From assembly GCA_963931925.1 (NCBI GenBank), contig OZ007570.1:34863084-34927083 (forward strand): a DNA stretch of 64,000 bases, in the 5' to 3' direction. Shown one piece after another: positions 19,018 through 48,862 of this stretch; the stretch's first letter is position 1, and every line of letters starts with the position of its first letter. Position numbers and translations under genes: made by a program. Below the pieces are notes generated by a model. It was not told the DNA's origin and did not search any database. It saw nothing but the letters and a program-made list of their open reading frames with translations. The stretch is from Onchidella celtica (lineage: Eukaryota > Mollusca > Gastropoda > Systellommatophora > Onchidiidae).

Positions 19018-20946
19018 ATGTCAGAGGCTATTGGAAGGCTTGGCCAGGAAGCAGACGCCTTGGGGCTCACTGGAAAGGAAAGACAGGACTACATCCGTGA
19101 AGGCCTAAAGGAGGAAAGAGAGAGGCAGGAGCGCATGGAGCAACTGAAGGAGGAAAGAGAGAGGCAAGAGCGCATGGGGCAACTGAAGATGGAACGACCG
19201 GCTCAGCTGGAAAGAGAAAAGATGAAGCACGAGCTGGAGATGGAGAGGATCCGCCATCAGCGTGGAGGCGAGTCGACGCAGGGGACCAGCGACCATGCTA
19301 GTTCCAAGAGACCCAAGCTACCTGCATTTCAGGATGGGAAGGACGATCTTGATAGCTGGCTACTTCGTTTTGAGAGGTTTGCCGAGACAGCAGACTGGCA
19401 CAGATCCACCTGGACGACATCACTGTCTGCCCTGCTGACTGGGAGAGCTCTGGAGTGCTTCTGTCGATTGCCGATCGATGAGGCCAAGGACTACGACAAA
19501 GTCAAGGAAGCTTTGCAGAAGAGGTATAACCTGTCAGAGGACGGTTACAGACTCATGTTCAGACAAGGTAAGCCTGAAGATGGAGAAGATGTCGGGATGT
19601 TTCTTACTAGGATCAAGACTTACCTAGAGAGGTGGATAAAGCTATCAAAGACGGAGAAGACCTACGAAGGAGTAAGGGACCTGTTCGTTAGAGAGCAGTT
19701 TATGGATGTTTGTCCACCAGACCTTGCGACCCATGTGAGGGAGAGGAAGCCAAAGACGCTACAGGACGTCGCAGACTCAGCGGAGGCGTTCCTGGTAGCG
19801 AGGAACCGGACACTCAGCGGGAGCGCCAGACTGCAGAGCCGGCCAGTGCGACAGAGGCCCAACGGAGACAGAAGCACACAGGTCTGCCATAGGTGCCAGA
19901 GGCCGGGACATAAGGCGACGGAGTGTCGTGCCAAGATAAACAACAAAGGTGAGTTGAAATGTTACCTTTGTGGAAAGCCAGGCCACGTTCGGAGAATGTG
20001 TCCAGCCCAGAAGGATGCGGGGCGAGGCAAGCCGAACAAGGCGGCGGCGGCCGTAGTTATAGCGGCGGACGAGTCGTCGAGACAGGATGCGACGACGGCT
20101 GACACCAGCATCAACGTTCAAGCGGTAATGAAGGACGGGAAGCTCCAGTTAGCGGTGCCTGTTACGTGCGGAGGATGCAGTGACGGAAGGACCGTGGAGA
20201 AGCTGAAGTTACCAATGATGAAGGGCTTGATTGGAAATCGAGCAGTAGACGTCCTAAGAGATACCGGCTGTGAAGGTGTAGTGGTGCGGCGATCACTGGT
20301 GGACGACGGACAGCTCACCGGTGGGAAGAAACTTATCGCGAGGATCGATAACTCCTTGTTAGCGGCGGAGGAAGCCATTATCGACGTGAGAACGCCTTAC
20401 CTGACGGGCAGAGTGACGGCACTGTGTCTCCCGGAGACCATCTGCGACCTAGTAGCCGGGAACGTGGACGGAGCGAAGGACCCGTACGACCCTGATACTG
20501 AGGTGATGGTAGGAGCGGTGACCACGAGGGCCCAGGAGAAGAGGAAGGACCAGTCTACGTCGCTGAGGGTGCCGAGGGCAGAACGGCACGCGGGAGTGGA
20601 TAGGAAGGAACTCATCCGACTCCAGGAAGAAGACGAAGACCTCAAGAAGTTGGGGCAGAAGAAAATTCCGACCAACAGAGGCAACAAGTCCGTACACTTC
20701 GAGAGACACGGGGGTGTACTGTACCGGATTTATAGGGACATAAGACAGGCTACGATTACAAGACAAGTGGTACTGCCCGAGAAACTGAGGGAGTATGTAC
20801 TGAGCGTTGCCCATGATTCTATCGTCGGAGGACATCTCGGCGTGAAGAAGACGAAGGACAGGGTGATGAGCAATTTTTACTGGCCTGGTATTAAGGTGAC
20901 GTCGCGAGATACTGCCGCTCATGTGACATCTGCCAGAGGACAGTGA
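19018..20946 (+). CDS. GypD gag-protease-integrase N-terminus
   Basis: A 642-residue frame starting in good context (ACAACATGT). Residues 1-90 are charged coiled coil with a repeated KEERERQERM unit. About 95-265 is the SCAN-like capsid domain (FQDGKDDLDSWLLRFERF, LLTGRALECF). Zinc knuckles lie near 289 (CHRCQRPGHKATEC) and 314 (CYLCGKPGHVRRMC). The protease core is LRDTGC near 413. The integrase HH half of the zinc finger (HDSIVGGH) is near 598. The frame is lost after about 20895: the CC half of the same finger continues in the frame of the next ORF. One base appears to be missing at about 20896, so the two ORFs are halves of one polyprotein, as GypE confirms. Confidence 0.88.
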   Translation: MSEAIGRLGQEADALGLTGKERQDYIREGLKEERERQERMEQLKEERERQERMGQLKMERPAQLEREKMKHELEMERIRHQRGGESTQGTSDHASSKRPKLPAFQDGKDDLDSWLLRFERFAETADWHRSTWTTSLSALLTGRALECFCRLPIDEAKDYDKVKEALQKRYNLSEDGYRLMFRQGKPEDGEDVGMFLTRIKTYLERWIKLSKTEKTYEGVRDLFVREQFMDVCPPDLATHVRERKPKTLQDVADSAEAFLVARNRTLSGSARLQSRPVRQRPNGDRSTQVCHRCQRPGHKATECRAKINNKGELKCYLCGKPGHVRRMCPAQKDAGRGKPNKAAAAVVIAADESSRQDATTADTSINVQAVMKDGKLQLAVPVTCGGCSDGRTVEKLKLPMMKGLIGNRAVDVLRDTGCEGVVVRRSLVDDGQLTGGKKLIARIDNSLLAAEEAIIDVRTPYLTGRVTALCLPETICDLVAGNVDGAKDPYDPDTEVMVGAVTTRAQEKRKDQSTSLRVPRAERHAGVDRKELIRLQEEDEDLKKLGQKKIPTNRGNKSVHFERHGGVLYRIYRDIRQATITRQVVLPEKLREYVLSVAHDSIVGGHLGVKKTKDRVMSNFYWPGIKVTSRDTAAHVTSARGQ

Positions 20947-23537
20947 ACAAGGGAGCGACTCCTAAGGTGCATTTGCAGAGTATGCCAGTGGTAGACATCC
21001 CATTTAGGAGAGTGGCCGTGGACCTAGTAGGACCTATTGACCCCCCAAGTGAAGGCGGACATCGGTATATCCTGGTATACGTAGACCACGCTACTCGTTA
21101 CCCTGAAGCGACCCCCTTGAAGAAGATTGACGCGGAGACAGTAGCAGAAGCCTTAGTAAATATCTACAGCCGTTTGGGTGTGCCCGAGGAGATCTTATCT
21201 GATCAAGGGACTCAATTCATGCCGGACGTCATGAAAGAAACGAACAGACTACTGGGAATTCGACAGTCGACCACCACAGTCTACCACCCTATGTGCAACG
21301 GGCTGGTGGAGCGATTTAACGGCACACTGAAGAAGACCTTGAGGCGACTGTGCGCGGAGCAACCTAAGCAGTGGCACCGATACATTAACCCGCTGCTCTT
21401 CGCGTATCGTGAAGTTCCCCAAGAATCGACAAAGTTCGCCCCATTCGAGTTGCTGTATGGAAGAACGGTGAGAGGACCGATGCACATCTTGCGACAATTA
21501 TGGACCAAGGACGTAGAGGAGCCGGAGACAAAAACCAGTAACCAGTACGTCATGGAACTACGCGAGCGGCTGGAGGACACTTGGAAGTTGGCTACGGAAG
21601 AGCTCTCAAAGGCACAAGGTAGACAGAAAACCTACTACGACCGGAAGGAGCGAGAGAGGAAGTTCCGCCCTGGCGACGAAGTTTTAGTACTGCTGCCGAC
21701 AAACGCCAACAAGCTCCTAGTCCAGTGGAAGGGACCATACAAGATAGTCTCGGTTGTCGGCGTCAACGACTACAAAGTCAAGATGGGTGTGAAAGAGAAG
21801 ACATTGCACGCTAACCTTCTCAAGAGGTATATCCCCAGGACTACACCAGCGACGACGCAAGCAGCGGCGGCGGCAATGGGATCGGCATCTGTCGTGACCG
21901 AGATGTGTGGGATGAACGACGGCAGGAGCGACACCACACCTGGAGATGTCGACGCTATGATGGACGACGACGGTGATGGTGCTGGGACTGTGCTGGCAGA
22001 GAACGACGTGATGGACGAGAGTCAACCTGTGGAGTCGGCTGGCATGGCAGTCATCGAGGACTGCGACCTGGAAGGCGACAACGGTGGAATGACGGAGGAC
22101 CTTGCCGACCTAGGGAGCTGGGACCAGAAGGAAGGCTACGAAGATGTCCAATATGGAACGCAGCTGACGCCGGAACAACGTCAACAACTCGGCGACGTGG
22201 TGAAGGAGTATCAACGCATCTTCACCAATCTCCCCGGATGCTGCCAGTTAGGCGAACATCGCATCGACCTGACATCAGAGGTACCTGTTCGGCAACGACC
22301 ATACCCGGTGCCCTATGCTATGCGCGACTCCTTGAAGGAGGAGCTCAGCACCATGGAAAGGTTGGGCATCATACGCAGGAGCTCATCAGCGTATGCTTTA
22401 CCGGTTGTTGTGGTCAAGAAGAAGGATGGATCCAACCGAGTCTGCATCGACTACAGGAGGCTGAACAAGATCACTGTGTTCGACCCTCATCCGACAGCAG
22501 CCCCATCGGAAGTGTTCCAGAGTCTGTCGAGAGGAAGAATATTCTCTCGGATCGACTTGAGCAAGGGATACTGGCAAGTGCGAGTCCGGGAACAAGACAT
22601 TCCCAAGACAGCGTTCGTCACCATGGGCGAACACTATGAATTCACCCGGATGCCCTTCGGGATGATGAACTCAGGAGCTACACTGAACAGGATCGTGAAG
22701 CCATTGATCCAGGAACTGAACAATGTGACAGCGTATGTGGACGACCTGCTGATCCATACAGAGACATTCGACGAGCATGTGAAGGCTCTCAAGGAATTGC
22801 TGCAGAGGATGGACCAAGCTGGATTAACTGCAAGACCATCCAAGTGCCTGATTGGAACGTCTGAAGTGGACTTTGTTGGGCACTCAGTGGGAAAGGGTAT
22901 GATTGGTCTGTTAGAAGAAAATGTGAGTAAGGTGCGAGATGCACCCAGGCCCACCACTAAGAAGGAAGTGAAAGCATTTTTAGGCCTGGTGGGATATTAC
23001 CAAGAATTTGTACCTAACTTTGCAGCGATTGCAGAACCACTGTCTGATTTGCTTAGAAAGGGTCAGCCCAATGTAGTTCAGTGGGAGGAAGTGCAGGAGA
23101 AAGCGTACACTTCTCTGAAGAATGCCATTGTTTCCAAACCCGTGTTATGTTTGCCAGATTTTTCAAAAGAATTTGTCTTAGCAACTGATGCATCAGACCG
23201 CGGGTTGGGTGCTGCTCTTATGCAGGAATATGAGGGAAAGTTATATCCTGTGGCATATGCCAGTCGTAAGCTATTGCCTCGTGAGACGAAATATTCAGTC
23301 TCAGAGCGAGAATGCCTAGCCATCGTTTGGGCGGTAAAGAAGTTTACTTTGTATTTGTATGGTAAGGAGTTTGTGCTCCAGACTGACCATAGGTCATTAG
23401 AGTATTTGAATTCTGCCAGATTTGACAGCCCAAAGCTATTACGATGGAGTCTATTTTTACAGTCATATCGATTCAGGATTAGGTATGTCAAGGGCAAGGA
23501 AAATGTCGGCGCCGACTTCCTAAGTAGAGTGTTTTGA
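20943..23537 (+). CDS. GypD integrase-reverse transcriptase-RNase H
   Basis: An 864-codon frame; its GTG opening is not a credible eukaryotic start, because it is the continuation of the preceding polyprotein. The integrase core has D near residue 26 (VDLVGP), D near 85 (LSDQGTQF) and E 35 residues later (NGLVERFN), i.e. DD35E. The GPY/F module WKGPY is near 262. After an acidic linker of about 110 residues comes RT: CIDYRRLN near 502, the SRIDLSKGYWQ motif, and YVDD near 598. RNase H follows with ATDASDRGLG near 747, SERECLA and QTDHRSL, ending GADFLSR. Catalytic residues of all three enzymes appear intact. Confidence 0.9.
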   Translation: MNKGATPKVHLQSMPVVDIPFRRVAVDLVGPIDPPSEGGHRYILVYVDHATRYPEATPLKKIDAETVAEALVNIYSRLGVPEEILSDQGTQFMPDVMKETNRLLGIRQSTTTVYHPMCNGLVERFNGTLKKTLRRLCAEQPKQWHRYINPLLFAYREVPQESTKFAPFELLYGRTVRGPMHILRQLWTKDVEEPETKTSNQYVMELRERLEDTWKLATEELSKAQGRQKTYYDRKERERKFRPGDEVLVLLPTNANKLLVQWKGPYKIVSVVGVNDYKVKMGVKEKTLHANLLKRYIPRTTPATTQAAAAAMGSASVVTEMCGMNDGRSDTTPGDVDAMMDDDGDGAGTVLAENDVMDESQPVESAGMAVIEDCDLEGDNGGMTEDLADLGSWDQKEGYEDVQYGTQLTPEQRQQLGDVVKEYQRIFTNLPGCCQLGEHRIDLTSEVPVRQRPYPVPYAMRDSLKEELSTMERLGIIRRSSSAYALPVVVVKKKDGSNRVCIDYRRLNKITVFDPHPTAAPSEVFQSLSRGRIFSRIDLSKGYWQVRVREQDIPKTAFVTMGEHYEFTRMPFGMMNSGATLNRIVKPLIQELNNVTAYVDDLLIHTETFDEHVKALKELLQRMDQAGLTARPSKCLIGTSEVDFVGHSVGKGMIGLLEENVSKVRDAPRPTTKKEVKAFLGLVGYYQEFVPNFAAIAEPLSDLLRKGQPNVVQWEEVQEKAYTSLKNAIVSKPVLCLPDFSKEFVLATDASDRGLGAALMQEYEGKLYPVAYASRKLLPRETKYSVSERECLAIVWAVKKFTLYLYGKEFVLQTDHRSLEYLNSARFDSPKLLRWSLFLQSYRFRIRYVKGKENVGADFLSRVF

Positions 23538-27013: not shown

Positions 27014-30000
27014 CTAAATTAACCGGGACAACACATCGGCTTGTACATTATTCCCAGGTATAGCTCTAATGGTAAATTTGTATTCCTGGAGCGCAAGGCT
27101 CCATCGGGTAAGTCGCGCATTTCTCGCTCTGTTCGACTTGAGGAATAGTAATGGACGATGATCCGTTTCAATTATAAATTCGGACATTAATAAGTATCGA
27201 GAAAATGCATCGACCGCGTAAACAATCGCGAGACACTCACGTTCGATAATCGCATATCGAGTCTCTCTATCAAGTAGCTTCCGGCTTGCGTAAAAGCACG
27301 GACGTAAGGAACCTTCATGCTCTTGGAGCAACACGGCGCCGATACCTTTATCCGACGCATCTGTACGGACGACGAAGGTCTGGCGAATATCTGGTGAAAC
27401 AAGCAGGGGGAAAGTAGAAAATAAATTCTGAATAGTCTGAAGGGCATCAGCGCACTGAGGCGTCCAGACGACTTTATTTGGAAAATTCTTCCTCGTTAGA
27501 TCAGATAACGGGGCTGAAAGGGAAGAAAAGTTTGGTATGAACTTCCTGTAGTAATTCAAAAGTCCCAACAAGCTACGGACTTGTTTTTTAGTTTTAGGGG
27601 GTTGAAGTTTCAAAATAGTGGATATTTTGCGATTGTCTGGAGTCTGAACCCCGCGGGTTATGGTATGACCCAAGAAGTTTATGTGGGAATAGCCCAAGAA
27701 GACCTTACTGGGCCTCGCGGTAAGGCCAGCTCGGCGAAGAGTGGCAAAGACTTCACGAAGGGCCATCAAGTGGCCAGCCCAATCGGTCTGAAAAATACAT
27801 ATATCATCGAAGTAGGATAACACGCAGCGCAGTTCATTTAATAAGATGTTCATCATGCGCGCGAAAGTTGCTGGTGCAGTAACCAGTCCAAAAGGCATAT
27901 ATTTCCATTGCATTAAACCCAAAGGGGTTTGAAAGGCTGTATACTGTTTACTATCCTCTTCGAGAGGAATCTGCCAATATCCTTTGGATAAGTCTATTTT
28001 AGAGAAGATAGTGGCGTTAGATAACCGCGCGAAAAGGTCCTCCTGATTGGGAATGGGTTCCGCATCATAGATGGTAATAGCATTGAGCTTTCTATAGTCA
28101 ATGCAGAAGCGCACGGTATCGTCTTTCTTCTTGACTAACACAATGGGCGAGCAATAAGGGCTTGTAGACCGCTCTATTACGCCTAATTGTAACATTGCAC
28201 GTACCTCGGTGATTATTGTTTCGTGAGCGTGCAGCGGGTACGGGTACGGTTTAACAAACACTGGTACGTCTGTCTGAAGTCGTATTACATGTTGGACTAA
28301 AGACGTAGAACCGGGCAGGTCAGTGAACACTGTCGCAAATTCTTGGAGCAGGTCCGTAAGGTCCTGTTTTTGAGACGGCGTAAGCTCATCACTGATATTA
28401 ATATCACTGATGCTCTCGGAGGCTTGTAATATGGGCAAGGATCTGTCGATACTTAACGGGTCCTCGTCGTCGACAGTAACTAAAGCCGCGTTGGCCCTTG
28501 CGATGACATGAACGGAGTCGCCTCGACGACGATCATCGCTAGGCAGGTACTTTTTGAGCATATTAATATGGAATACTTTTTGCTGCCCGCGGATGTCTAT
28601 CAAGTAATTGACTCTGGAGAGTCTCTTTTGGACTCTATATGGTCCCTTCCACGTTAGAAGGAGTTTATTTTGCGTTTGAGGCAAAAGTACAAGTGTCAGA
28701 TCTCCGACTGACAAGGCGCGCATGTGGGCGCCCTGATCGCGATAAAATTTTGAAGAACTCGCTCTAGCGCATGCAAATTGCAGAGCGGTTTTGCATGCAT
28801 TAATAATTCGTTGTCGGAGATCGACAACATATTGATACGCGGAGCGCGTATCATAATCATCGGTTTCCGAACCGGTGAACAATTGACTAAGAATGGCCAT
28901 CGGGCCACGTGGTTTACGTCCGTATAATAGTTCAAATGGGGAGAAACCCGTGGACGCGTGCGGGAGTTCCCTATAGGCGAAAAGAATAGCGGGGAGCTGA
29001 CGGTCCCAGTCTCCTGGTCTATCGGCAGATACGCGGGCTAACATTGCCTTCATGCTCGCGTTCCACCGCTCGCAACAACCGTTTGATTGCGGATGATAGG
29101 GGGACGTTAATTTCTGCCTAATGCCCGCTAACTCCAGCACCTTTTTGTATAGTTCAGAGGTGAATTGTGGACCTCTGTCGGAAAGAATCTCGTCGGGAAA
29201 TCCGACTCGCGAGAAAATAGTCATAAGCGCTTCAGCGATATGGTCAGCCGTAATGTCTTTCAAGGGAATAGCCTCAGGCCAGCGCGTCGCGTAGTCGATG
29301 ACCGAAAGAATAAAACGGTGGCCCCTATCTGATTTAGTAAGAGGGCCCACCAAGTCAATCGCGACCCGCTGAAATGGGATTGAGACTGGAGGCATTTCCT
29401 GTAGGGGCGCGCGCGATGCCTTACCTTTGGGTGTACGTTTTTGACACACATCGCAGCGCGCCACAAAACGGTTGACGTCCGCGTATACTCCAGGCCAAAA
29501 AAAATGTGCCAATATTCGTGACTTGGTTCTGGCTGAACCTTGGTGGCCTGAAAAGGAAGTGTCGTGCGCGAGACGCAAAATATCACGACGGAACGACTTA
29601 GGAACTACCAGCTGTTCGACGGCGTCGCGTTTATTTCTGAAATTTCTATAAAGTAATTTATTCTTAATAAGGAATGGAGAGGCATTTCCATTCTGAGGTT
29701 GAACCCTCGCAAACAGCGGTTGAAGTGAAGAGTCGTTTTGTTGTTCTCTGTAAAAAATGGAAGGCGTGACATTGAAATCAAAAACGGGGGTCGCTAAATT
29801 ACTATCCGGTGGACGCTTTGACTGTTGTCGGGTGATTACACACGCAACTTCTTCTGTCCAGATGTTCAAGTCGCCGTCAGGTGTATCGTTCACCTGTGGT
29901 AAGTTACCAATTATTAAATCGGCAACCGGATTCGGTAAAACACACGCCGTTACGACACCGGTAATAAATGGCGTGGCGACGTAGACCTCCGCGAGTCGGA

Positions 30001-31525
30001 AACGCTCGACGGAGCCCCCAAAAGTAATACATGTTGCCTCTTGTTCAATAAGTTGGGTCGGTCGAACCAAAGACTCCCGGACACCTATGGTGGTGCATCC
30101 TGTATCCCGTAACACGGACGCGGGTATGGCATTTACATGACCTTTATATAATGTCAATGACCCGTGCTGATGAAGGGCCGACATCACCGGGACGGCGCCC
30201 GTCATGGGCGACGTGAGTTCGACGGGGCTGACATTCTGTGCAGCCGGAACTACGACAGTGCAAGCATTCGCAGCCTCGAATTTTACTTTACAATCCTTTG
30301 ATATATGCCCAGGTCTATTGCACCGATAGCACCTGATAATATTCACGTTACGTTGGGGTGGCATTGGAGGCGCGTTATATGGAGTAGTAAAATATGCCCA
30401 AGGAGGTGGGCATGGTGGGCCTTGATACTGGAAGCCCTTGTAATTATCCCGACGCGGTGGACCAGAAAAATTTTGCGCTTGTGGTCCAGTGGGTGGTCCA
30501 GCACGTCGCGGAAAACCGCGCGATCGATTCGGTGGCGGTTGGGAGTATGCCCTCGGAGACGGTGTCTGGCGATTAGTAGGACGGGAATTTCTACTTCCCG
30601 CAGGTGGAGCACCACTGACTCCGGCATAAAAGGGTTCGCTTGTTTTTGGTTTCGCCAGCGAACGATTGGGATGGGCAGAAGCGTACTGCTCCGCCAACGA
30701 CGTGGTTTCTATTAATGTTTTCGGTGCCCACTCTTTAAGGTGGGACACCAGATCAGGGTGACACGCGTTATAAATTTGGTCCTTTAATATTAGCTCGTAC
30801 AGCCCTTGAAAGCTACCGTCAGCGATGCCGGCTAACTGAATCCAGCGGTCGAGGTAGTGCTTTAATCGATCAACGTACGTAGAGAAGTTTTCGGATGGGT
30901 CCGGTTTACACGTCCGGAATCGTTGGTGAAACCCGTCCTCTGTATGTTGAAATCTTTTGAGAAGAGCCTTTTTAAGGACATCATAGTTTTTAGAATCTTC
31001 AATATTGAGGCCATGAAATACCTCAAGCGCACGACCAGTCAATAAATTTGCAAGGCACGAAGTCCATTCCGTGCGGTCCCAACCGGCGGCTACAGCGTGG
31101 AGCTCAAAGCGATGGATGTAAGAATCGATGTGGTCGATCTTATCATTGTAGGTCGGTAGCTTCGGCTTAGTTTTAACATTATTCGCGGATGCTAGCGGAG
31201 CCGCGGTGGGCTGGATGGCCTGCAATTCTAGTTTCTTTAGAAAAATTTCATGCTCTCTTTGAGCCGCGTTCTCAGCTCTTTTTCGTTCTTCTTTTTCTCT
31301 TTCTCGTTCTTCTTTTTCTCTTTCTCGTTCTTCTTTTTCTCTTTCGTGTCGTTCTTTTTCTCTTTCTCGTTCGCGTTCCTCGGCCTTCTCGGCTCGTTCT
31401 GCGGCGCGCTCCTCTCGAGCCAGCTCTTGGTCTTCCTTTTGTTTCCTTTCGCACCAAGCGGGTAGCTGATCATCGGGGACGCCCAACAGCTTCGCCGCGT
31501 TAATATAGGCAGAGTAATCAGTCAT
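27014..31525 (-). CDS. GypE gag-pol polyprotein (gag-PR-IN-RT-RNase H)
   Basis: A 1503-residue uninterrupted polyprotein. Residues 30-95 are a charged coiled coil built on repeated EREKEE units. About 120-285 is the SCAN-like capsid domain (YNDKIDHIDSYIHRFE, LLTGRALEVFHGL). A proline/glycine-rich stretch precedes one zinc knuckle (CYRCNRPGHISKDC near 398). The protease core is VLRDTGC near 478. The integrase zinc finger lies near 650-690 and the core has D (IDLVGP, about 723), D (LSDRGPQF, about 781) and E (NGCCERWN), with 35 residues between the last two; WKGPY follows. RT carries FCIDYRKLN and a YFDD catalytic box near 1237. RNase H has RTDASDKGIG near 1390, IERECLAIV and ETDHRPL, ending ADVLSRL. 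All catalytic residues look present. Confidence 0.95.
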   Translation of the reverse strand: MTDYSAYINAAKLLGVPDDQLPAWCERKQKEDQELAREERAAERAEKAEEREREREKERHEREKEEREREKEEREREKEERKRAENAAQREHEIFLKKLELQAIQPTAAPLASANNVKTKPKLPTYNDKIDHIDSYIHRFELHAVAAGWDRTEWTSCLANLLTGRALEVFHGLNIEDSKNYDVLKKALLKRFQHTEDGFHQRFRTCKPDPSENFSTYVDRLKHYLDRWIQLAGIADGSFQGLYELILKDQIYNACHPDLVSHLKEWAPKTLIETTSLAEQYASAHPNRSLAKPKTSEPFYAGVSGAPPAGSRNSRPTNRQTPSPRAYSQPPPNRSRGFPRRAGPPTGPQAQNFSGPPRRDNYKGFQYQGPPCPPPWAYFTTPYNAPPMPPQRNVNIIRCYRCNRPGHISKDCKVKFEAANACTVVVPAAQNVSPVELTSPMTGAVPVMSALHQHGSLTLYKGHVNAIPASVLRDTGCTTIGVRESLVRPTQLIEQEATCITFGGSVERFRLAEVYVATPFITGVVTACVLPNPVADLIIGNLPQVNDTPDGDLNIWTEEVACVITRQQSKRPPDSNLATPVFDFNVTPSIFYREQQNDSSLQPLFARVQPQNGNASPFLIKNKLLYRNFRNKRDAVEQLVVPKSFRRDILRLAHDTSFSGHQGSARTKSRILAHFFWPGVYADVNRFVARCDVCQKRTPKGKASRAPLQEMPPVSIPFQRVAIDLVGPLTKSDRGHRFILSVIDYATRWPEAIPLKDITADHIAEALMTIFSRVGFPDEILSDRGPQFTSELYKKVLELAGIRQKLTSPYHPQSNGCCERWNASMKAMLARVSADRPGDWDRQLPAILFAYRELPHASTGFSPFELLYGRKPRGPMAILSQLFTGSETDDYDTRSAYQYVVDLRQRIINACKTALQFACARASSSKFYRDQGAHMRALSVGDLTLVLLPQTQNKLLLTWKGPYRVQKRLSRVNYLIDIRGQQKVFHINMLKKYLPSDDRRRGDSVHVIARANAALVTVDDEDPLSIDRSLPILQASESISDINISDELTPSQKQDLTDLLQEFATVFTDLPGSTSLVQHVIRLQTDVPVFVKPYPYPLHAHETIITEVRAMLQLGVIERSTSPYCSPIVLVKKKDDTVRFCIDYRKLNAITIYDAEPIPNQEDLFARLSNATIFSKIDLSKGYWQIPLEEDSKQYTAFQTPLGLMQWKYMPFGLVTAPATFARMMNILLNELRCVLSYFDDICIFQTDWAGHLMALREVFATLRRAGLTARPSKVFLGYSHINFLGHTITRGVQTPDNRKISTILKLQPPKTKKQVRSLLGLLNYYRKFIPNFSSLSAPLSDLTRKNFPNKVVWTPQCADALQTIQNLFSTFPLLVSPDIRQTFVVRTDASDKGIGAVLLQEHEGSLRPCFYASRKLLDRETRYAIIERECLAIVYAVDAFSRYLLMSEFIIETDHRPLLFLKSNRARNARLTRWSLALQEYKFTIRAIPGNNVQADVLSRLI
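31275..31380 (-). repeat. 24-bp tandem repeat encoding the gag coiled coil
   Basis: Three to four near-identical 24-base units (plus strand TCTTTTTCTCTTTCTCGTTC...) encode EREKEERE within the GypE N-terminus. Unit number may vary between copies of the family. Confidence 0.8.
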
Positions 31526-38648: not shown

Positions 38649-41426
38649 GAAGACCAGATTCACAAGTTCTGGTAAGTTACTGGATTTCTTTACAGGCACT
38701 GATCTGCCCCATAGTCCAAAGAATGTCTGATTTGTAATCAAGTAAACACATGTTAACTTTCTCTCTCTCCCCCTCTCCCACATTAAGTACAAACATTATT
38801 TTGGTAACATTATCAGAGAATGTTAACTTGTCTACCGTTTGCATAGTTCCAGGCATGAAGTCAAAACCCTGTTAGTTCAAAACTTTCAAAAGTATCTTTT
38901 TCGGACAAAAATTACTCTTTCTAATTATTCCTTTACCTCACTTCTGTAAAATGTTATGGCCGATGATTTATGAAAAACAAAATAATTTATTACTGTAATC
39001 AATACTCTTTTTTTTTCTGTGGGGGCCGGAGGCCGGGTGACGCCGGTACGACCGCACACGGACTGACAGGAGGCTCGCCAGCCATAAAATAAATCATTAA
39101 ATAGAATATTTTAGAATAAAAATCTTAAATAAATAATATATTAATATACAAACAGCGTATTTTGTTAAATAAATTTATTTTAAAAATAGCTTCTTTTATC
39201 TGCCAGGGCCGACAGACTTTTTCTGCCGGCCCAGCCATACAGGCAGAAACAATGGCCTCGGATGCCTATTGCACCCGGGACCACCCAACGCAGAGTTTTT
39301 ATAAAGATCCCTGAAATTATGCTCTGCTGCGGGACTAGTCTTGGTGCCGCCAGGCTCCCTGGTGGCACCAAGAACTAAAGATCAAAATTCAAAAACCCTA
39401 GAGCCCTGCTAGGTCTTCATATCTTATTACTTGTTTTAACTGGGGCTCTAGAGGAAAACAGTCAATATTAGTGACGTTTCATTGGCAATAAAGGGATCAA
39501 ACTCCTGAAAGGGACAGTGTCCCCGAACTGCTGTCCACTTATCTCCCTTTAACTGTCACTTGTCTTGCCCTTACCTTGGCACTCACCAGAAAATAAATAA
39601 AAACCACAACCAGAAGAGACTACGGACAACGACAATGGAGCAAACGAGAAGTACTACACAAGAGAAAAACATAATCAAGAACAGGGGGCCAACAGCATTA
39701 TGCTGAGGCCCCCGAGAAACAAAAGATCTCAATCTTTTTTTTTCTTGTAAGCATTTTATCAAAACTTGAGATTCAGCTCCCAACTAGCAGGTTGTCAGTC
39801 ATTGGAAACATTGCAATTAATGTAATAACATCCTGTAGAAATGTCATATGCAAGGGCGGGGTAGACTTTGGTGTACGTACTGAAGTGAAATCTTCCTGAG
39901 TAAACAAATTAGTTTGAAATTCATACTTTATTTCCTCAACTTCCAGTTATGAGAATTTAAGAACCTTTATTCATAGATTCTTAAGGTCTGATCGTCTGTA
40001 CACAGATCAATTCCCTGAACATTAAAATGCATTGTAAAATGGCTTTGTGACAGCTGGTTCTGTAAAGTCCGCACACCTGTCAGGCTGTTCACACCTTCAA
40101 TCGTGAGTTACGAGTTATGCAGCAGCAGATGGTCAAACTTATCCGTGCAGTGTGGGAATGTCTCGGTTGCTCCAGCATTCAGCCATTGCCCCTGTCTATG
40201 TATGGCCAATGTACACTGAATCTTTTTTCATGTGTTCACCTGAAGCTGGATCGGAGATGTTGGGTGTTGTGGGGGTATGGTATAGAGAGCGTATATGAGA
40301 GAGGGAGGGGGAGTTTTGGAGGGCGGGAGCAGCCTTTTGAATTATAACAATGAGTTTTTAATAACGGTTAAATAATTTATTTTTTTTTTAAAGCATGGGA
40401 GGGGGGAAACAAGGTAGAATGCCTAGGAAATAAAATCAACTCGAGAAAGAGAAAGTACATTGTCATAATGGATTAAGAACTTAGTATTCTCCTCATTTAT
40501 TGTAGCTCGTAGCATATAAAATGGGAAGGGGGGGGGGGAGCGAAGGGGACAAAAGATTGCCAAAATCGAACATAAGTTATTTTATGGATACACACACACC
40601 GCAGTCTCAAACACATACACACTTAAGTCACACACACAAACACACACACATCAGTTACACACACACATACATGACACATATATATACACACACACCTGAC
40701 TAACACACTTCACACACACATACATACACACACCTGACTAACATATCACACACACACACACTAACACACCTGACTAACACACCTCACACGGACACACTGA
40801 CACACAAATATCAAAGCACAGTAGCATACTTTTGATTTCTGTAATTTCAAAGATACAAATCAGACAGTTTCAAAACTGCATTAAACCAACAACTATAAAG
40901 ATGTTGACACTCACCATGCACGGTTGTAGTAGAGAAGCTGTTGAAGTTATAGCCATGATAACATTTACCTGCGATGTCCTGTATTTGTCCTGCGACCATT
41001 CAAAAATGTTCATTAAAACGTTTTATGTTCAAACCAAGAAAATGCCAAACACAGATCGGACAGCACACAACCTACAATAGCTTATCACTGCAATCCCATG
41101 GCCTATTCCATCACATAACTGTAAATCAAAATTTAATATCCAAACTACACTTGTGCATGCTTTAGAAACTAATTGTGAAGGACATTTTAAGTACCTCAAT
41201 ATGCCCGCACTTTTCCACAATTGCCTTTGGATTCGATTCGATACGTCATGCGTTGAATCGGGCCGGGAAGTAAGTACATGTATAAAACAGATTGCTTGTG
41301 ATTTGTTAACCTTTCGACGACGAGAATATCTGCATAGCGGGAGGGATGAGAGCTCAAAAGAGGCGATCGAGTGTTGGCGCATGGGGCAACTTGTGTTATA
41401 TTGTACATTATAATAATAATTATCTA
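38649..41426. other. Non-coding stretch with GC-rich hairpins and CA repeat
   Basis: No gene recognised. 39030-39460 holds several strong hairpins (separate entry). A CA/ACAC-rich microsatellite lies at about 40590-40805, and poly-G runs near 40400 and 40528. Short frames here are chance. Confidence 0.55.
39205..39455. other. Cluster of strong hairpins
   Basis: At 39339-39372, TCTTGGTGCC-G-CCAGG-CTC-CCTGG-T-GGCACCAAGA forms a stem of about 16 pairs with a three-base loop. Near 39209-39232, GGCCGACAG and CTGCCGGCC pair. Near 39400-39452, CTAGAGCCC pairs with GGGCTCTAG across a loop of about 30 bases. The function is unknown; it could be the end of an unrecognised transposon or a structured RNA. 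Confidence 0.5.
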
Positions 41427-41958
41427 ATCGGGTGGCCAAACCACAGCTCGCTAGCCACATCGGCTCCCCGACCTTCAGTTCGCGGCTCGTGGAAATATGT
41501 TCCTCCATGTTTTGACCACGTATTTACTGACAAAATAAATATCATTAGAAATATTCCTTTTTTTTTTTAACCCTTTTAGTTTAATTTTTTGACAGTCAAT
41601 TTTTGTAACTGAAATGCAAATTCCCAAGTGTTTCTTAGATATTCTCGTAGTTTGTTATTGTATTTGAATTGGCTTAGTTAAAGCAACCACTAGTCAAGAT
41701 TTTGAAAACATTTAAAATATGTGTACTTTGTGATCACTGAAACTAATGCAAATCAACAGTTTAAAAAACTGCATATATGAGTAAATATTGTTGCATACAT
41801 GTATTTCATAATATTTACGTAAATGTTTTGTAACAAAATATGTATAAAACAGTAAAAACGTGTGTGTACATTTTATTCATATCTTGCGGCTCTCAAACAC
41901 CTACTACCTAAAATTTGTGATATATGGCTCTTATATTAAGCAAATTTGGCCACCCCTG
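41427..41958. mobile_element. Non-autonomous hAT-like element
   Basis: The right end GTTTGGCCACCCCTG is the inverse of the widespread hAT terminus CAGGGGTGGCCAAAC. The left end GGGTGGCCAAACC..GCTCGC.AGCCACAT matches it with two terminal changes. 532 bp, no transposase. Flanking 8-mers (ATTATCTA, ATATATTA) do not match well, so it is old. A second, 5'-shortened copy is at 51917-52172. Confidence 0.65.
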
Positions 41959-44089
41959 ATATATTATAGAGAGTTAATTATGTAATTACATGTTAAGGCT
42001 AAGACTCTGGAGTTGCACTGAGGCCGAAGATTGATCATAATAATAGTAATCTGTGTAAACAACAGTAAGCGATTTAGTAAATTCAATAATAAAACATTAC
42101 CGTAGGTGTTACACATAAAACTCTGTTTCCCGTTAACCTGTCAAGAAAACATGTTTATTACATTACTTAAGTCCACTTTTATTGTTGTAGCCGTCACCAT
42201 TAGTCTACTAACCAAACGTTTATTGCGTCACTGACAACCACTTGTACTACTGTCGTTCGTCTTTTTTTCTTTTTGGCCGTGTTTGTTGTAATAAAGTGAT
42301 TGTGGTCCCGAGAACTCGTAGATTATTTATATCATGTTCCAGTAAAACATTTAAGAAGGGTTGGGGACAATAAAATAATGTCTCTCGTCTTAGCTACCTA
42401 GTAAATCAACAACAAAAAAAAGTCGATATTGGACAGGTTTACCGTTAGCCACCTGTTTGAAGAAACATCCTATCCTTTAAAAAGATTTTAATACGCAAAA
42501 AATGTCCTGCTGTTGCAATACTTATTCATTCTGATGTGGGATAAAGGAATGCAAAATAGAATACACTGTGTAAATCACCAAATTACCAGATACTAACCTT
42601 CTGTATTATTACTGATTCAGGCTATGAACTATGACAAAACATTTAAACTAAAAATCACAGCAGGGCTTAGAGATTTTAGCGGGAAGCGAGACAGAGGCTG
42701 GCACAGGAACCAGTGTGATGTCACGCCACCTAATTATTATGCATCATTACTAAACCACTACTACCAAGACACACCGCAATCCAGCTCGAAGCCAGCTGGA
42801 TGCTAACTGTTTGTAAGCCAGACCAAGGCTGGCATGTGGTGGCAGGCCACCTAATTACATGTATTATGCATCACACTAAAACACTGCTAACAAGTCACAC
42901 CGTCACCCAGCTGGGTGCTGGCTGAAGGACCACCAATAGGCCCATTGCGAATGACGTGACAGAGTGTTTTTGTTTTGTATTTCCGACACCTAAAATGGCG
43001 GGTGGATCAGCTGACGAGTGTAACTTCGAGATTTGTCTAAGCAGTTAAAATGCCTGCTGGTTGCATTGCAGTTGACTGTCAGGTCAGGGGTGGAAAGGAT
43101 GAATCCAAGCTGGTCAGATTCCCTACCATCCGTGTAAACAATGGAAAGGAAGTGAAAGAATTTACCGAACGTCTCCCATGTGCGTGAACGCACGTGTCAT
43201 TGTTTACTGTGGTGAACTTTTTTTTTAGCTCGCCGCCGATTGGTTCGCGACGCCTGAAGTGCTCACAGTGCAAATCAGCTAACGAATCAAAATCAATGCC
43301 ACCATCGCCATGGTTAAGCGTCTATCCTGACAACTAAAATGGCCGATATCCGCAATGGGCCTATTGCTGGCGGCAGACGTTATAGAGCAGTGCCGTATAA
43401 TCACCAGCCATCAGACTGGTTTCAGCTTGCCCGATTCAAAGATTCAAAGCAATACTTATATCTAACAATACTGAGGACGTCTGTGCACAATTTTGTCATA
43501 CAAACAATCTTTTCACCCGTTCCCATCATTTTAATAACAAATGTGTGGATTTCGATGATTATAATAAAAAGTATTATCAAACAATGCTTTCGGATCAGAA
43601 CTGGGTCACGACCTATTCACTTTTTAAACATAATTCCGAGCAACGTGACTTCCTTATGCCTCAGCCACCGATACTCACTGTGTTTATACATCGGTTTGAC
43701 GCAGAAAATGACCTTTCCTTTGTTATGAAACTATGAGAGCCAATCAGATGAACTTCAGCCACGTGGTTTCATTTTTTTTTCTAGCAGCCATGGAGGTTGA
43801 GTGACACATGAGTGAAGAGGAGACGCGGAATTTGATCATTTGTTTTGTGTTCACTTAGAAAATTCATTGAGATCGGCAGAAGGAAAGTTGATGTTTATAT
43901 TTATAAATGCCATGTCCAAATAAATACACCCGTCTTTTTTCTACGGTATTTTAAATGCAGATAAAACATTGTGTTCCTGAAATATGCCGCCATGTCAGCG
44001 AACCATCAACCTCTTGCTCGGTGCTGCATCGCTCGGTCACGCTTAGAGTTACTGGCACGGGATTCCCCAGTAATGTATATTCTATTTAT
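41959..44089. other. Non-coding stretch with a local duplication and short inverted repeat
   Basis: About 100 bases around CCACCTAATTA..TTATGCATCA..ACTAAA..CAC occur twice in tandem (about 42691-42800 and 42828-42925). CGCAATGGGCCTATTG at about 43351-43366 is inverted at about 42936-42951, bracketing the THAP-like fragment. Otherwise nothing. Confidence 0.5.
43050..43186 (+). pseudogene. THAP-like domain N-terminal fragment
   Basis: An ATG-initiated frame of 45 codons opens MPAGCIAVDC and continues KLVRFPTI, matching the start of a THAP (C2CH zinc finger) domain: CxxxxC followed by the F-P core. It stops before the second C and H. It could be a first coding exon or a relic of a THAP-bearing transposon; no splice donor was convincing. 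Confidence 0.4.
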
Positions 44090-44329
44090 AGTGTCACCGT
44101 CACCGGTCCCCTAACCGCGCTGGTCGTTGGGGCACCACTGATGACTGCACAATAGTAGAAAATAAGATTTGGGGGAAAACCCAGCTAGTTGAATGTAGGT
44201 CAGCCATCAAATAGAGTGGTGAGTGGAGAAGGTAAGGCAAACAACTGGCTATGAGTAAAGCTCAGACTACTCATATCAACTGACTAGTACGAAATGCAAT
44301 GTTTGTCTCACTTAAGACCAAGGTTGAGG

Positions 44330-47300
44330 TCACAGAATTTGGGAAGTTTTGGTAAAGTTGGTGAAACCTATTTCCCTCCACCTGTCCCGGTCTTCTGTGG
44401 CTCTCTGTGATTCACTAAAACTCAGGCCTGTCCACCTGTCCCGGTCTTCTGTGGCTCTCTGTGATTCACTAAAACTCAGGCCTGTCCACCTGTCCCGGTC
44501 TTCTGTGGCTCTCTGTGATTCACTAAAACTCAGGCCTGTCCACCTGTCCCGGTCTTCTGTGGCTCTCTGTGATTCACTAAAACTCAGGCCTGTCCACCTG
44601 TCCCGGTCTTCTGTGGCTCTCTGTGATTCACTAAAACTCAGGCCTGTCCACCTGTCCCGGTCTTCTGTGGCTCTCGGTGATTCACTGAAACTCAGGCCTG
44701 TCCATCTGTCCCGGTCTTCTGTGGCTCTCTGTGATTCATTGAAACTCAGGCCTGTCCACCTGTCCCGGTCTCCCATGACTCTCTGTGATTCACTAAAACT
44801 CAGGCCTGTCCACCTGTCCCGGTCTTCTGTGGCTCTCGGTGATTCACTAAAACTCAGGCCTGTCCACCTGTCCCGGTCTTCTGTGGCTCTCTGTGATTCA
44901 CTCAAACTCAGGCCTGTCCACCTGTCCCGGTCTTCTGTGGCTCTCGGTGATTCACTAAAACTCAGGCCTGTCCACCTGTCCCAGTCTCCCGTAGCTCTCT
45001 GTGATTCACTAAAACTCAGGCCTGTCCACCTGTCCCGGTCTTCTGTGGCTCTCTGTGATTCACTAAAACTCAGGCCTGTCCACCTGTCCCGGTCTTCTGT
45101 GGCTCTCTGTGATTCACTAAAACTCAGGCCTGTCCACCTGTCCCGGTCTTCTGTGGCTCTCGGTGATTCACTAAAACTCAGGCCTGTCCACCTGTCCCGG
45201 TCTCCCATGACTCTCTGTGATTCACTAAAACTCAGGCCTATCCACCTGTCCCGGTCTTCTGTGGCTCTCTGTGATTCACTAAAACTCAGGCCTGTCCACC
45301 TGTCCCGGTCTCCCGTAGCTCTCGGTGATTCACTGAAACTCAGGCCTGTCCACCTGTCCCGGTCTTCTGTGGCTCTCGGTGATTCACTGAAACTCAGGCC
45401 TGTCCACCTGTCCCAGTCTTCAGTGGCTCTCTGTGATTCACTAAAACTCAGGCCTGTCCACCTGTCCCGGTCTTCTGTGGCTCTCGGTGATTCACTAAAA
45501 CTCAGGCCTGTCCACCTGTCCCGGTCTCCCATGACTCTCTGTGATTCACTAAAACTCAGGCCTATCCACCTGTCCCGGTCTTCTGTGGCTCTCTGTGATT
45601 CACTAAAACTCAGGCCTGTCCACCTGTCCCGGTCTCCCGTAGCTCTCGGTGATTCACTGAAACTCAGGCCTGTCCACCTGTCCCGGTCTTCTGTGGCTCT
45701 CGGTGATTCACTGAAACTCAGGCCTGTCCACCTGTCCCAGTCTTCAGTGGCTCTCTGTGATTCACTAAAACTCAGGCCTGTCCACCTGTCCCGGTCTTCT
45801 GTTTCTCTCTGTGATTGACTAAAACTCAGGCCTGTCCACCTGTCCCGGTCTTCTGTGGCTCTCTGTGATTCACTAAAACTCAGGCCTGTCCACCTGTCCC
45901 GGTCTCCCGTAGCTCTCGGTGATTCACTGAAACTCAGGCCTGTCCACCTGTCCCGGTCTTCTGTGGCTCTCGGTGATTCACTAAAACTCAGGCCTGTCCA
46001 CCTGTCCCGGTCTTCTGTGGCTCTCGGTGATTCACTAAAACTCAGGCCTGTCCACCTGTCCCGGTCTTCTGTGGCTCTCGGTGATTCACTAAAACTCAGG
46101 CCTGTCCACCTGTCCCGGTCTTCTGTGGCTCTCGGTGATTCACTAAAACTCAGGCCTGTCCACCTGTCCCGGTCTTCTGTGGCTCTCTGTGATTCACTGA
46201 AACTCAGGCCTGTCCACCTGTCCCGGTCTTCTGTGGCTCTCTGTGAGTCACTAAAACTCAGGCCTGTCCACCTGTCCCAGTCTCCCGTGGCTCTCGGTGA
46301 TTCACTGAAACTCAGGCCTGTCCACCTGTCCCGGTCTTCTGTTCCTCTCTGTGATTCACTGAAACTCAGGCCTGTCCACCTGTCCCGGTCTTCTGTGGCT
46401 CTCTGTGAGTCACTAAAACTCAGGCCTGTCCACCTGTCCCGGTCTCCCGTGGCTCTCGGTGATTCACTGAAACTCAGGCCTGTCCACCTGTCCCGGTCTC
46501 CCGTGGCTCTCGGTGATTCACTGAAACTCAGGGCTGTCCACCTGTCCCGGTCTCCCGTGGCTCTCGGTGATTCACTGAAACTCAGGCCTGTCCACCTGTC
46601 CCGGTCTCCCGTGGCTCTCGGTGATTCACTGAAACTCAGGCCTGTCCACCTGTCCCGGTCTCCCGTGGCTCTCGGTGATTCACTAAAACTCAGGCCTGTC
46701 CACCTGTCCCGGTCTCCCGTGGCTCTCGGTGATTCACTGAAACTCAGGCCTGTCCACCTGTCCCGGTCTCCCGTGGCTCTCGGTGATTCACTGAAACTCA
46801 GGCCTGTCCACCTGTCCCGGTCTCCCGTGGCTCTCGGTGATTCACTGAAACTCAGGCCTGTCCACCTGTCCCGGTCTCCCATGACTCTCGGTGATTCACT
46901 AAAACTCAGGCCCGTCCACCTGTCCCGGCCTCCCATTACTCTCGGTGAGTCACTGAAACTCAGGCCCGTCCACCTGTCCCGGCCTCCCATGACTCTCGGT
47001 GATTCACTGAAACTCAGGCCCGTCCACCTGTCCCGGCCTCCCATGACTCTCGGTGAGTCACTGAAACTCAGGCCCGTCCACCTGTCCCGGCCTCCCATGA
47101 CTCTCGGTGATTCACTAAAACTCAGGCCTGTCCACCTGTCCCGGCCTCCCATGACTCTCGGTGATTCACTGAAACTCAGGCCCGTCCACCTGTCCCGGTC
47201 TCCCGTAGCTCTCGGTGAGTCACTAAAACTCAGGCCCGTCCACCTGTCCCGGCCTCCCATGGCTCTCGGTGATTCACTGAAACTCAGGCCCGTCCACCTG

Positions 47301-48394
47301 TCCCGGTCTCCCGTAGCTCTCGGTGAGTCACTAAAACTCAGGCCCGTCCACCTGTCCAGGTCTCCCATGACTCTCGGTGATTCACTGAAACTCAGGCCTG
47401 TCCACCTGTCCCGGCCTCCCATGGCTCTCGGTGATTCACTGAAACTCAGGCCCGTCCACCTGTCCCGGTCTCCCGTAGCTCTCGGTGAGTCACTAAAACT
47501 CAGGCCTGTCCATCTGTCCAGGCCTCCCATGACTCTCGGTGATTCACTGAAACTCAGGCCCGTCCACTCGCGGATGTTATCCTCCCATCTTTTCTTCTGT
47601 CTACCTTTCCCTCGTCCTCCTCCAACAGTTCCTTGAAAGATGGTTTTAGAGAGGCATTCTGACCACGACACGTGGCCATACCAGCGGAGCTTGCGCTTCT
47701 TGACAACGGTCAGAAGATCTTCGTGAGGGCCAATGGCTTGGGTGATTCTACTGCGGACTATTTCGTTGGTGGCGTGGTGCTTGAATGGGATGTTCATAAG
47801 CTTACGATAGCATCTCATCTCCATCGCGCAATTCCTTCTCTGGAGATCTGATGTGAGTGTCCATATTTCGCAGGCAGATAGGAGTATCGAGATAACCAAG
47901 GACGGCATCAATCTAACTTTTGACTGAAGGGTTATATTTTTGTCCGTCCAAATGGTTTTCAACCTGGTGTGCGCTGCTGTTGTCTGCGCAATCCTGGATA
48001 GTAGTTCAGGCTTGGAGCCCTCTTCAGTTATCGTGGAACCTAGGTATTTGAACCGTGTTACATTTTCAAGCTTTTCTCCCTTCACTTTTATGTCTGTGCT
48101 GATGCCGTTGGTGTTATTCGTCATTACTTTGGTTTTCTCAGCACTGATTTCCATTCCATAAGCTACAGATACTTCGACGAGTCCTTCTATGAGCATGGCC
48201 AGCTCTTGTTCACTGCCTGCCAATCCATCGATATCGTCGGCAAAAGGCAGGTTGGTAATTGTTCTGCCTCCTATGCTGACCGTCCCCTCATGGTTCTCTA
48301 GTGCGTCCGTCAATATTCTTTCAAGAAATATGTTGAAGAGGGTGGGCGATAGCAAACATCCTTGTCTGACTCCGACCGTTGAATTACCAGACAT
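44330..48394 (-). pseudogene. LINE RT C-terminus fused to 59 in-frame 18-residue repeats
   Basis: A 1354-residue open frame. Residues 1-60 contain the RT palm GVRQGCLLSPTLFN and catalytic FADDIDG. The following 200 residues are thumb/connection, including YGMEISAEKTKVM, FKYLGSTI and KLRWYGHVSW. KKRWEDNIREWTGL then opens the repeat: an 18-residue unit of the form WTGLSFSESPRATGDRDR recurs 59 times without a stop or frameshift and closes with RWREIGF. The RT start is missing, so the protein cannot be a functional polymerase. The array is highly charged and regular; whether it is translated is unknown. The methionine at 48394 is incidental. Confidence 0.85.
44377..47562. repeat. 54-bp minisatellite, 59 units, no length variation
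   Basis: The unit begins TCCACCTGTCCCGGTCTTCT on the plus strand. 3186 bases equal exactly 59 units. Variants fall into blocks: GATTCACTAAAA/GAAA, TCTTCTGTGG versus TCCCATGACT or TCCCGTAGCT, CTCTGTG versus CTCGGTG. A six-unit block (45133-45456) is repeated directly at 45457-45780. A three-unit block recurs at the right end. Both strands are open, giving long antisense frames 44349-45818 and 45855-47636. Confidence 0.97.
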
Positions 48395-48419
48395 TAAACA
48401 CAGGACTGACGTTTGTCAT

Positions 48420-48862
48420 TGAGAAATATGAGGAATATTCCAAAACTGATTTTTTAAAGCATATTGTGCACAATCTTTAAACATTTAAGAGTATTTATTT
48501 TTACTGTGTTTTCTCAAAAACAAAAATTTCATTATTTTCATCTTTAAATATTTAAAAATCACAAAAAGACTGTGGGAACACAGCAAGGCTTAACGCAAAG
48601 ATAAAAAATGGCAATAAAGAAAAAAGTACATGTAGCGGCCATTTTCTGTCTTGCCTTTTAGTTTGCGTTTCATCGTCTGGGCATTATTTCTTACGCAAGG
48701 CTTTATTACATACAACGTTTTCCTTTTGCCAGTTTTTGACTCTAAATATTTAAGAACCTTTCTTTTCACTGTATTTTCTCTGAAAAAAAAAAGTCATTAT
48801 TTTGATGTGAAAAAAAAAATTTTATATCACGCAATCACAGTTTTTTTTTCACAGGAGAAAAC
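48420..48862. repeat. AT-rich spacer with a direct and a dispersed repeat
   Basis: A segment beginning near 48480 (CATTTAAGAG..TTTTACTGTGTTTTCTC) recurs near 48747. The segment 48641-48745 recurs at about 62665-62770 at roughly 80% identity. It sits directly downstream of the THAP pseudogene and may be part of the same mobile element. Confidence 0.5.

What the first reader, a model, noticed from the sequence alone, without database searches (positions are those of the whole stretch)
44377..47562. A LINE C-terminal module expanded into exactly 59 in-frame 54-bp copies
Seen: 3186 bases = 59 x 54 with no indel, continuing the reading frame of a LINE RT and returning to its normal C-terminus. Known: relatives carry one copy of this EWTGL...W module. 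Inference: a minisatellite was born inside a retrotransposon ORF and has kept perfect unit length, as expected from unequal exchange or, less likely, selection on an encoded repeat protein.
Basis: partly seen in the sequence, partly recalled or inferred. Interest (0 to 1): 0.78.

Follow-up and report, generated by a model that had tools for sequence, protein, structure and literature searches.

The report
LINE-borne minisatellite, expanded after insertion
A short piece of a dead jumping gene has multiplied into 59 copies here and into 3 to several thousand copies at dozens of other places in the same genome, which looks like satellite DNA being born rather than a new repeat protein.

Summary
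In detail: 59 x 54 bp, no indels, one open minus-strand frame. The reading needs correcting. The window copy is a 5'-truncated LINE fragment. Its C-terminus is not normal: a 216-bp dispersed repeat interrupts the LINE tail. The array is not unique. Joint patterns find 59 insertions of this LINE: 38 with arrays of 3 to about 4,840 units (one about 261 kb), 16 with one unit, 5 truncated inside the unit. Frame conservation is passive: other arrays have 1-bp indels, a 55-bp unit amplified nine times, and in-frame stops in 74 of 1112 units, one stop-bearing variant filling 33 of 55 counted units at one locus. Rare mutations match neutrality (71/21/4 non-synonymous/synonymous/stop; expected 71.5/19.8/4.7). 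First and last units keep different allele sets, so sources probably carried about two units; no insertion is truncated inside a longer array, so long arrays grew after insertion, most likely by unequal exchange from a module flanked by a 5-bp GTGGA repeat. This is TE-seeded satellite birth: a new, unusually readable member of a known kind.

The parts
44377..47567 (-). Tandem array: 59 units of 54 bp (read 47567 down to 44382 in the LINE sense) plus the closing 5-bp GTGGA repeat at 44381-44377
   Evidence: TRF; unit splitting; flank comparison
45099..45802 (-). Higher-order duplication inside the array: a 380-base exact self-match (45099-45478) at an offset of 6 units (324 bp), the mark of a multi-unit duplication
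47568..48381 (-). 5'-truncated LINE: C-terminal part of the reverse transcriptase (RVT_1 profile 117-205) up to the array
   Evidence: Pfam; start inferred from other long copies aligning from query base 14
44370..44376 (-). First 7 bases of the LINE 3' tail (GGGAAAT) before the insert
44154..44369 (-). 216-bp dispersed repeat inserted in the LINE tail (AT on both sides); seven other listed genomic places match at 95-96%; supplies the aberrant C-terminus
44094..44153 (-). Remainder of the LINE 3' tail, matched in 15 of the 20 other array loci first fetched (three more end before the tail, one runs into N, L024 keeps only part)
41408..48842 (.). Segment present a second time, inverted, about 187 kb away on the same chromosome (L024, C4:34720500-34730400): 95% identical over 41408-44130 and 94% over 44863-48842, the latter piece including most of the array; same LINE insertion, 50 units instead of 59

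Best explanation
A LINE of the EN-RT (endonuclease plus reverse transcriptase) kind carries, near its C-terminus, a 54-bp module bounded on both sides by GTGGA. In source elements the module had already become a very short tandem array (inferred: about two units, an upstream type rich in 7G/19T/30C/36T/39T/45G and a downstream type rich in 42A). Reverse transcription scattered 5'-truncated copies with one or a few units. At most of the 38 array-bearing insertions (of 59 found) the array then grew in place, up to about 4,840 units, most likely by unequal exchange or replication slippage between whole units. Because this adds or removes whole 54-bp units, and 54 is divisible by 3, the frame stays open by default and is lost only when a unit itself mutates. 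Shown: the array lies in many 5'-truncated insertions, copy numbers vary, higher-order duplications exist, two duplicated insertions differ in copy number, and change at codon level fits neutrality. Inferred: the exchange mechanism, the two-unit source, and the GTGGA trigger.
For: Dispersed LINE copies with the same 5' and 3' joints. Of 37 outer flank pieces from the first 21 loci only window and L024 share a match over 800 bp, so the other insertions among these look separate. Duplicated insertions differ: window 59 versus L024 50; L033 1 unit versus L042 6 units, both with 32T, 46T and 53T, which elsewhere occur in single units only. Variants that are uncommon elsewhere fill one array: 31T in 14/14 units of L045 (at most 12/118 in four other loci), 27G, a stop, in 33/55 of L011 (4/119 and 1/18 elsewhere). 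A 55-bp unit is repeated 9 times in L021. No array of 2 or more units lacks its upstream LINE joint among the 51 3'-joint places. If sources had 3, 5 or 10 units, the chance of that is 0.0025, 6e-06 or 2e-12. First units are enriched for 7G, 36T and 45G (P <= 0.0006 each), last units for 42A (P 0.0001), of 26 tests without correction. A single-unit copy reads CGCGA|GTGGA...GACAG|GTGGAGGG. A review describes minisatellite births at 5-10 bp flanking repeats (PMC6947457, passages).
Against: No individuals were compared, so present-day instability is not shown. The truncation argument rests on 6 array copies truncated within 108 bp of the array and assumes an even truncation rate; a two-unit source is only borderline (P 0.05). 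Eight alternative bases occur at 17-26 of the 37 loci with counted units, which a two-unit source explains only with much recombination inside units; exchange between loci is a possible addition. 40A fills 13/13 units of L044 but is also common in the window and L024, so not every fixed variant is locus-specific. On the tree of upstream parts single-unit copies are clustered more than chance (5 changes, shuffled mean 8.9, 2 of 500 shuffles as low), so part of the one-versus-many state may be inherited from the source. Unit order is not shared between loci (38 forward versus 32 reverse of 300 pairs, 230 ties, Wilcoxon P 0.79), which fits turnover but gives no positive support. Gene conversion, slippage and unequal crossing-over are not separated.
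Confidence: 0.82

Rival explanations
1. The long arrays were already in the source LINEs and were copied whole by retrotransposition.
For: Within-array alleles are shared by many loci, first and last units keep distinct types across loci, and single-unit copies are partly clustered on the tree, so some multi-unit transmission probably happened.
Against: No insertion is truncated inside a multi-unit array among 51 3'-joint places. Upstream extents of array and single-unit copies do not differ (medians 201 and 320 bp, P 0.66, 28 and 13 copies; extents of L029 and L036 are minima because further LINE pieces lie upstream). No shared unit order. Variants uncommon elsewhere fill whole arrays.
Confidence: 0.1
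2. The encoded repeat peptide is under selection, so the perfect frame is functional.
For: The window frame is open through 59 units and the unit length is a multiple of three.
Against: Rare variants fit neutrality: 71 non-synonymous, 21 synonymous, 4 stop against 71.5, 19.8, 4.7 expected; stops occur in 74 of 1112 units at 12 of 37 loci, and stop-bearing variants are themselves amplified in L011 and L042; one antisense frame is more open (4 of 1112 units with a stop). Ten of 28 paired arrays have a joint-to-joint length that breaks the frame. With 22 distinct variants in the window and about 5% of changes giving a stop, about one stop is expected, so none has a chance of about one in three (my arithmetic). 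The repeat part finds no homologous protein at E <= 0.001 among 7988 candidates scored.
Confidence: 0.02
3. The reverse transcriptase made the arrays itself during insertion by slipping back over the GTGGA repeat.
For: The arrays counted lie inside LINE insertions and keep the upstream joint; the 5-bp repeat could serve slippage on RNA as well as on DNA.
Against: Slipping copies should often be truncated inside the array; none of the 51 3'-joint places is. Duplicated insertions differ in copy number, so numbers changed after insertion. Higher-order blocks suggest later exchange.
Confidence: 0.05
4. The array length is an assembly error.
For: Long tandem arrays are error-prone in assemblies; one locus (L019) runs into N; read data were not available.
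Against: Units carry many variants in a mixed order, and the same array type is found at dozens of loci, 17 of 28 paired arrays having an exact whole number of units. An error could change counts, not the existence of the family.
Confidence: 0.05

Closest known systems
Satellites grown from internal tandem repeats of transposons (Tetris/TIR-220 in Drosophila virilis, PMC4079207, abstract and section list seen; MITE and Helentron cases in PMC12628747, passages seen)
   Same: Short repeats inside dispersed elements become kilobase arrays while other copies stay short.
   Different: Here the carrier is a LINE and the unit is a piece of its coding sequence; single-unit copies and a roughly 261-kb array coexist.
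Satellites with LINE coding sequence: PROsat of Phodopus (L1 ORF2), Pvc20 of the seal (L1 ORF2), HinfI of chicken (CR1) (listed in PMC9659126, passages seen)
   Same: LINE ORF sequence in a satellite.
   Different: From the passages seen, those satellites contain LINE-like sequence; here a 54-bp module is amplified inside many recognisable insertions that keep the LINE joints. The original papers were not read.
Minisatellites born inside Alu, B1 or LTR elements; slippage over 5-10 bp flanking repeats (Haber and Louis model as told in PMC6947457, passages seen)
   Same: Flanking short direct repeat (GTGGA), whole-unit expansion, dispersed loci.
   Different: The seed is used in dozens of insertions of one LINE family, with a frame-neutral unit length.

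Membership tests
EN-RT LINE (non-LTR retrotransposon) | Reverse transcriptase domain | tested here: met
   PF00078 at E 1.5e-13 in the window fragment
EN-RT LINE (non-LTR retrotransposon) | Endonuclease domain upstream in the same ORF | tested here: not met
   Absent from the window copy, which is truncated; so the window holds a fragment of such an element, not a complete one. Present in a sister element, L059 (PF03372), and in many homologues of about 1000 aa.
EN-RT LINE (non-LTR retrotransposon) | Copies with one 3' end and varied 5' truncation | tested here: met
   5' extents 42-868 bp before the array, same tail
EN-RT LINE (non-LTR retrotransposon) | Target-site duplications | not tested
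   Not examined
Minisatellite / satellite | Head-to-tail units of near-equal length | tested here: met
Minisatellite / satellite | Copy number differs between homologous arrays | tested here: met
   59 versus 50 and 1 versus 6 in two duplicated insertions; not tested between individuals
Satellite seeded by repeats inside a transposon | Short arrays inside dispersed elements and long arrays of the same unit in the same genome | tested here: met
   1 to about 4,840 units
Selected repeat protein | Frame and amino acids conserved beyond neutrality | tested here: not met
   frame-breaking units

The most novel reading that the evidence does not exclude
The C-terminal LINE module is a built-in satellite seed: because both ends of the conserved EWTG...W motif are encoded by TGGA-containing words 54 bp apart, an insertion that keeps the whole module tends to grow an array by itself, so one LINE family repeatedly and independently turns its dead copies into minisatellites and, once, into a satellite of hundreds of kilobases.
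Probability: 0.4. Interest if true: 0.68.

Novelty: new member of a known kind. Interest (0 to 1): 0.5.

Why it matters
How a satellite gets from one unit to many is usually reconstructed after the fact. Here one genome holds a series: unit cut, one unit, 3, 5, 6, 8, 10 and so on to 496 and about 4,840 units, each in a recognisable LINE insertion, and two duplicated insertions that changed copy number since they separated. If the reading holds, growth rate, the role of the 5-bp flanking repeat and the loss of the reading frame become measurable. It is also a caution for gene finding: a 1354-aa open frame with 59 perfect-length repeats can be neutral.

Tried and rejected
Order sharing between loci: a shuffle control first suggested it (69 of 300 pairs above 20 shuffles), but runs of like units inflate that control; against a reversed-order control it vanished (38 versus 32, 230 ties). 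Window/L024 (shared 3' end) and L017/L022 topped the shuffle list; L017/L022 also scores high reversed (19 versus 14).

Long open frames of 1921 and 2259 aa at C4:16553870 and C10:47759474 looked like intact array-bearing LINEs; both are artefacts of N stretches, and TRF finds no 54-bp array in the readable part of either stretch.

A full-length array-bearing element was looked for with the DNA just upstream: four same-family places span most of that 301-bp query (82-100% identical). L013, the query's own source and the only one with a known array, has a broken frame there. No intact source was found, but only the best 40 candidates were scored.

L046 and L066 share a tail variant and looked like a duplicated insertion; their upstream extents differ (152 and 97 bp), so they were treated as separate.

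Inverted repeats around the 216-bp insert: none found in 43000-44376.

The tree of upstream LINE parts (34 of 39 loci, those with at least 60 bp) is star-like and weak (16 of 31 inner branches open, 4 starred). The single-unit label needs 5 changes, at least 2 forced by starred branches, against a shuffled mean of 8.9 (2 of 500 as low): single-unit copies lie in several places but are partly clustered. It was not used as main evidence.

Dropped rows: units not 54 bp long or with N were left out of counts (1112 units from 37 loci kept; L034 and L037 gave none). L071 was left out because its units are damaged; window, L024 and L042 were kept there although they belong to duplicated insertions, and the first unit of L064 is probably misplaced by a base. 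One search used hand-copied extents of 41 loci and left out L024, L070, L072, L063, L033, L042 and all loci not fetched. Splitting stopped early in L022, L028 and L019, so their last unit may be a misfit.

Full report
The observation. TRF reports 44377-47567 as 59.1 copies of a 54-bp unit with 94% matches and no indels, and splitting gives 59 units of exactly 54 bp. On the minus strand one frame runs open from 48394 through the array to 44330 and starts in the C-terminal part of a reverse transcriptase (PF00078, profile 117-205). The plus strand over the array is almost as open (489- and 593-aa ORFs).

What flanks it. Other long copies of the LINE align from query base 14, so the window fragment begins at about 48381 and is a 5'-truncated copy. 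The LINE tail after the array (GGGAAATTGTGCAGTCATCAG...) is split here by 216 bp (44154-44369) that match seven other listed genomic places at 95-96%.

The family. A search with two units gave 477 matches, part of them listed, at many loci. The 5' joint of LINE and array was found at 50 places and the 3' joint at 51 (up to 3 mismatches; backward-pattern controls 0). Pairing gives 41 insertions with both joints: 13 with one unit (two of these shortened to 52 and 45 bp) and 28 with arrays. The 9 unpaired 5' joints are the window, L024, L011, L019, L022, L069, L070 and L071 with arrays, and L072 with one 55-bp unit. The 10 unpaired 3' joints are the far end of the L022 array, L064 (5 units) and L066 (19), L063 and L067 with a damaged single unit, and five truncated inside the last unit (L060, L061, L062, L065, L068). 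In total 59 insertions: 38 with arrays, 16 with one unit, 5 cut inside the unit. Array sizes run 3, 5, 6, 8, 10, 13, 14 and so on to 139, 184 and 496 units, and about 4,840 for C7:44495.7-44757.2 kb. The 496-unit and the roughly 261-kb arrays were sampled at both ends and at 3 and 4 inner points, and the samples are array. Where an array was not fetched whole, the unit number is a distance divided by 54. Of 37 outer flank pieces from the first 21 loci, only those of the window and L024 share a match over 800 bp.

Relatives. The 120 listed protein homologues of the RT part (306 found, candidates limited in length by the tool) carry RVT_1 and often endonuclease domains and are mostly 770-1070 aa; 77 show one EWTG...W module by a simple motif, 43 show none by that motif, none shows two or more. 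A sister element in the same genome (L059, 62% identical) has an endonuclease and a reverse transcriptase domain and one module. The repeat part alone found no homologous protein.

Is the frame selected? No sign of it. In 39 loci split, L010, L013, L024, L025 and L027 each have a 53-bp unit, L026 a 61-bp unit, L011 a 57-bp unit, and L021 has nine successive 55-bp units, so a frame-shifting unit was itself amplified. Of 28 paired arrays, 11 have a length that is not a multiple of 54, 10 of them off by a number not divisible by 3. Stops in the sense frame occur in 74 of 1112 units at 12 of 37 loci; in L011 one stop-bearing variant is in 33 of 55 counted units, and all six units of L042 bear one. 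Ninety-six rare mutation events (variants seen in at most two loci) split 71 non-synonymous, 21 synonymous and 4 stop, against 71.5, 19.8 and 4.7 expected from the same mutation spectrum. The window shows 22 distinct variants; with about 5% of changes giving a stop, about one stop is expected, so an open frame is unremarkable.

How the arrays arose. Three facts point to growth after insertion. First, two duplicated insertions differ: the window has 59 units and its inverted partner L024, about 187 kb away and 95% identical on the side without the array, has 50; L033 has one unit and its inverted partner L042, about 242 kb away on the same chromosome, has six, both with 32T, 46T and 53T, which elsewhere occur only in single units. 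Second, variants uncommon elsewhere fill single arrays (31T in L045, 27G in L011), and the window holds a 380-base exact repeat at a six-unit offset. Third, if long arrays had been reverse-transcribed, 5' truncations should fall inside them; none of the 51 3' joints has a multi-unit array without its upstream LINE, although array copies are truncated at about 3 per 54 bp just upstream. That disfavours sources of 3 units (P 0.0025) and speaks strongly against 5 or more (6e-06 and below); 2 units is borderline (0.05). For the smallest arrays (3 units) growth in place is not needed.

A short array was nevertheless transmitted. Eight alternative bases occur at 17-26 of 37 loci, single-unit loci included. 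They are not spread evenly: the first unit is enriched for 7G (11 of 30, expected 3.4), 36T (13 of 30, 5.7), 45G (11 of 30, 4.8), 19T (15 of 30, 9.1), 30C (20 of 30, 14.2) and 39T (13 of 30, 8.2); the last unit is enriched for 42A (8 of 23, 3.3) and poor in 30C (6 of 23, 11.8) and 39T (1 of 23, 5.8); the other sites show little or nothing, and the 26 tests are not corrected. This is expected if source elements had an upstream and a downstream unit that had already diverged. It is my inference that such sources had about two units. The partial clustering of single-unit copies on the tree also suggests that sources differed. Exchange between loci could add to the sharing and was not excluded.

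The trigger. In the single-unit copy L029 the module lies between two GTGGA words, a 5-bp direct repeat of the size at which minisatellites are thought to start (Haber and Louis, as told in PMC6947457; passages). In the sister L059 the words are GTGGA and ATGGA, TGGA being shared. That the repeat caused the first duplication is inferred.

What is known. Reviews list satellites from LINE coding or 3' parts (PROsat, Pvc20, HinfI, cetacean satellite; PMC9659126, passages) and satellites from arrays inside MITEs, Helentrons and foldback elements (PMC12628747, passages; PMC4079207, abstract and section list; bivalve satellites within Helitrons in PMC5139131, passages). Six full-text searches listed no title on a LINE module growing in many insertions; only capped lists were seen and the library holds open-licence papers only, so this is not proof of absence. 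I file it as a new member of a known kind.

Limits. One assembly, no reads, no individuals, species not named, target-site duplications and age not measured, and pattern searches with 3 mismatches miss older copies.

Mended: shared alleles counted as eight, not ten; variants called private are now given with their occurrences elsewhere; the clustering of single-unit copies on the tree is told; distances and identities of the duplicated segment corrected.

Noticed in passing
window 27014-31525 (-), 19018-23537 (+), 345-3746 (-): LTR-retrotransposon frames with the integrase zinc finger and core before the reverse transcriptase and RNase H, the reverse of the usual Gypsy order (clear in the 1503-aa frame; in the other two the parts lie in separate ORFs). 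From memory this resembles the Gmr1-like group; two gag parts match the Pfam SCAN domain.
   Followed up: partly
window 41408-48842 and L024: A segment of about 7.4 kb with the LINE and array is duplicated in inverted orientation about 187 kb away. Part of it (43700-44096) matches many genomic places at 80-87%, so the LINE may sit inside another dispersed element that moved.
   Followed up: partly
window 44154-44369: 216-bp dispersed repeat with AT on both sides, seven other listed genomic places at 95-96%, no inverted repeats found; family not identified.
   Followed up: partly
G000 C7:44495.7-44757.2 kb (L022, L047-L051): About 261 kb bounded by the two LINE joints and made of the 54-bp unit at the four inner points sampled: a satellite-sized block that seems to have grown inside one LINE insertion.
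   Followed up: partly
L021 units 2-10: Nine successive 55-bp units: a single-base insertion amplified with its unit.
   Followed up: yes
L058 4095-4561: A separate 44-bp, 10.6-copy array 3' of a sister LINE ORF.
   Followed up: no
window 11000-11427: CT-rich stretch of 428 bases.
   Followed up: no
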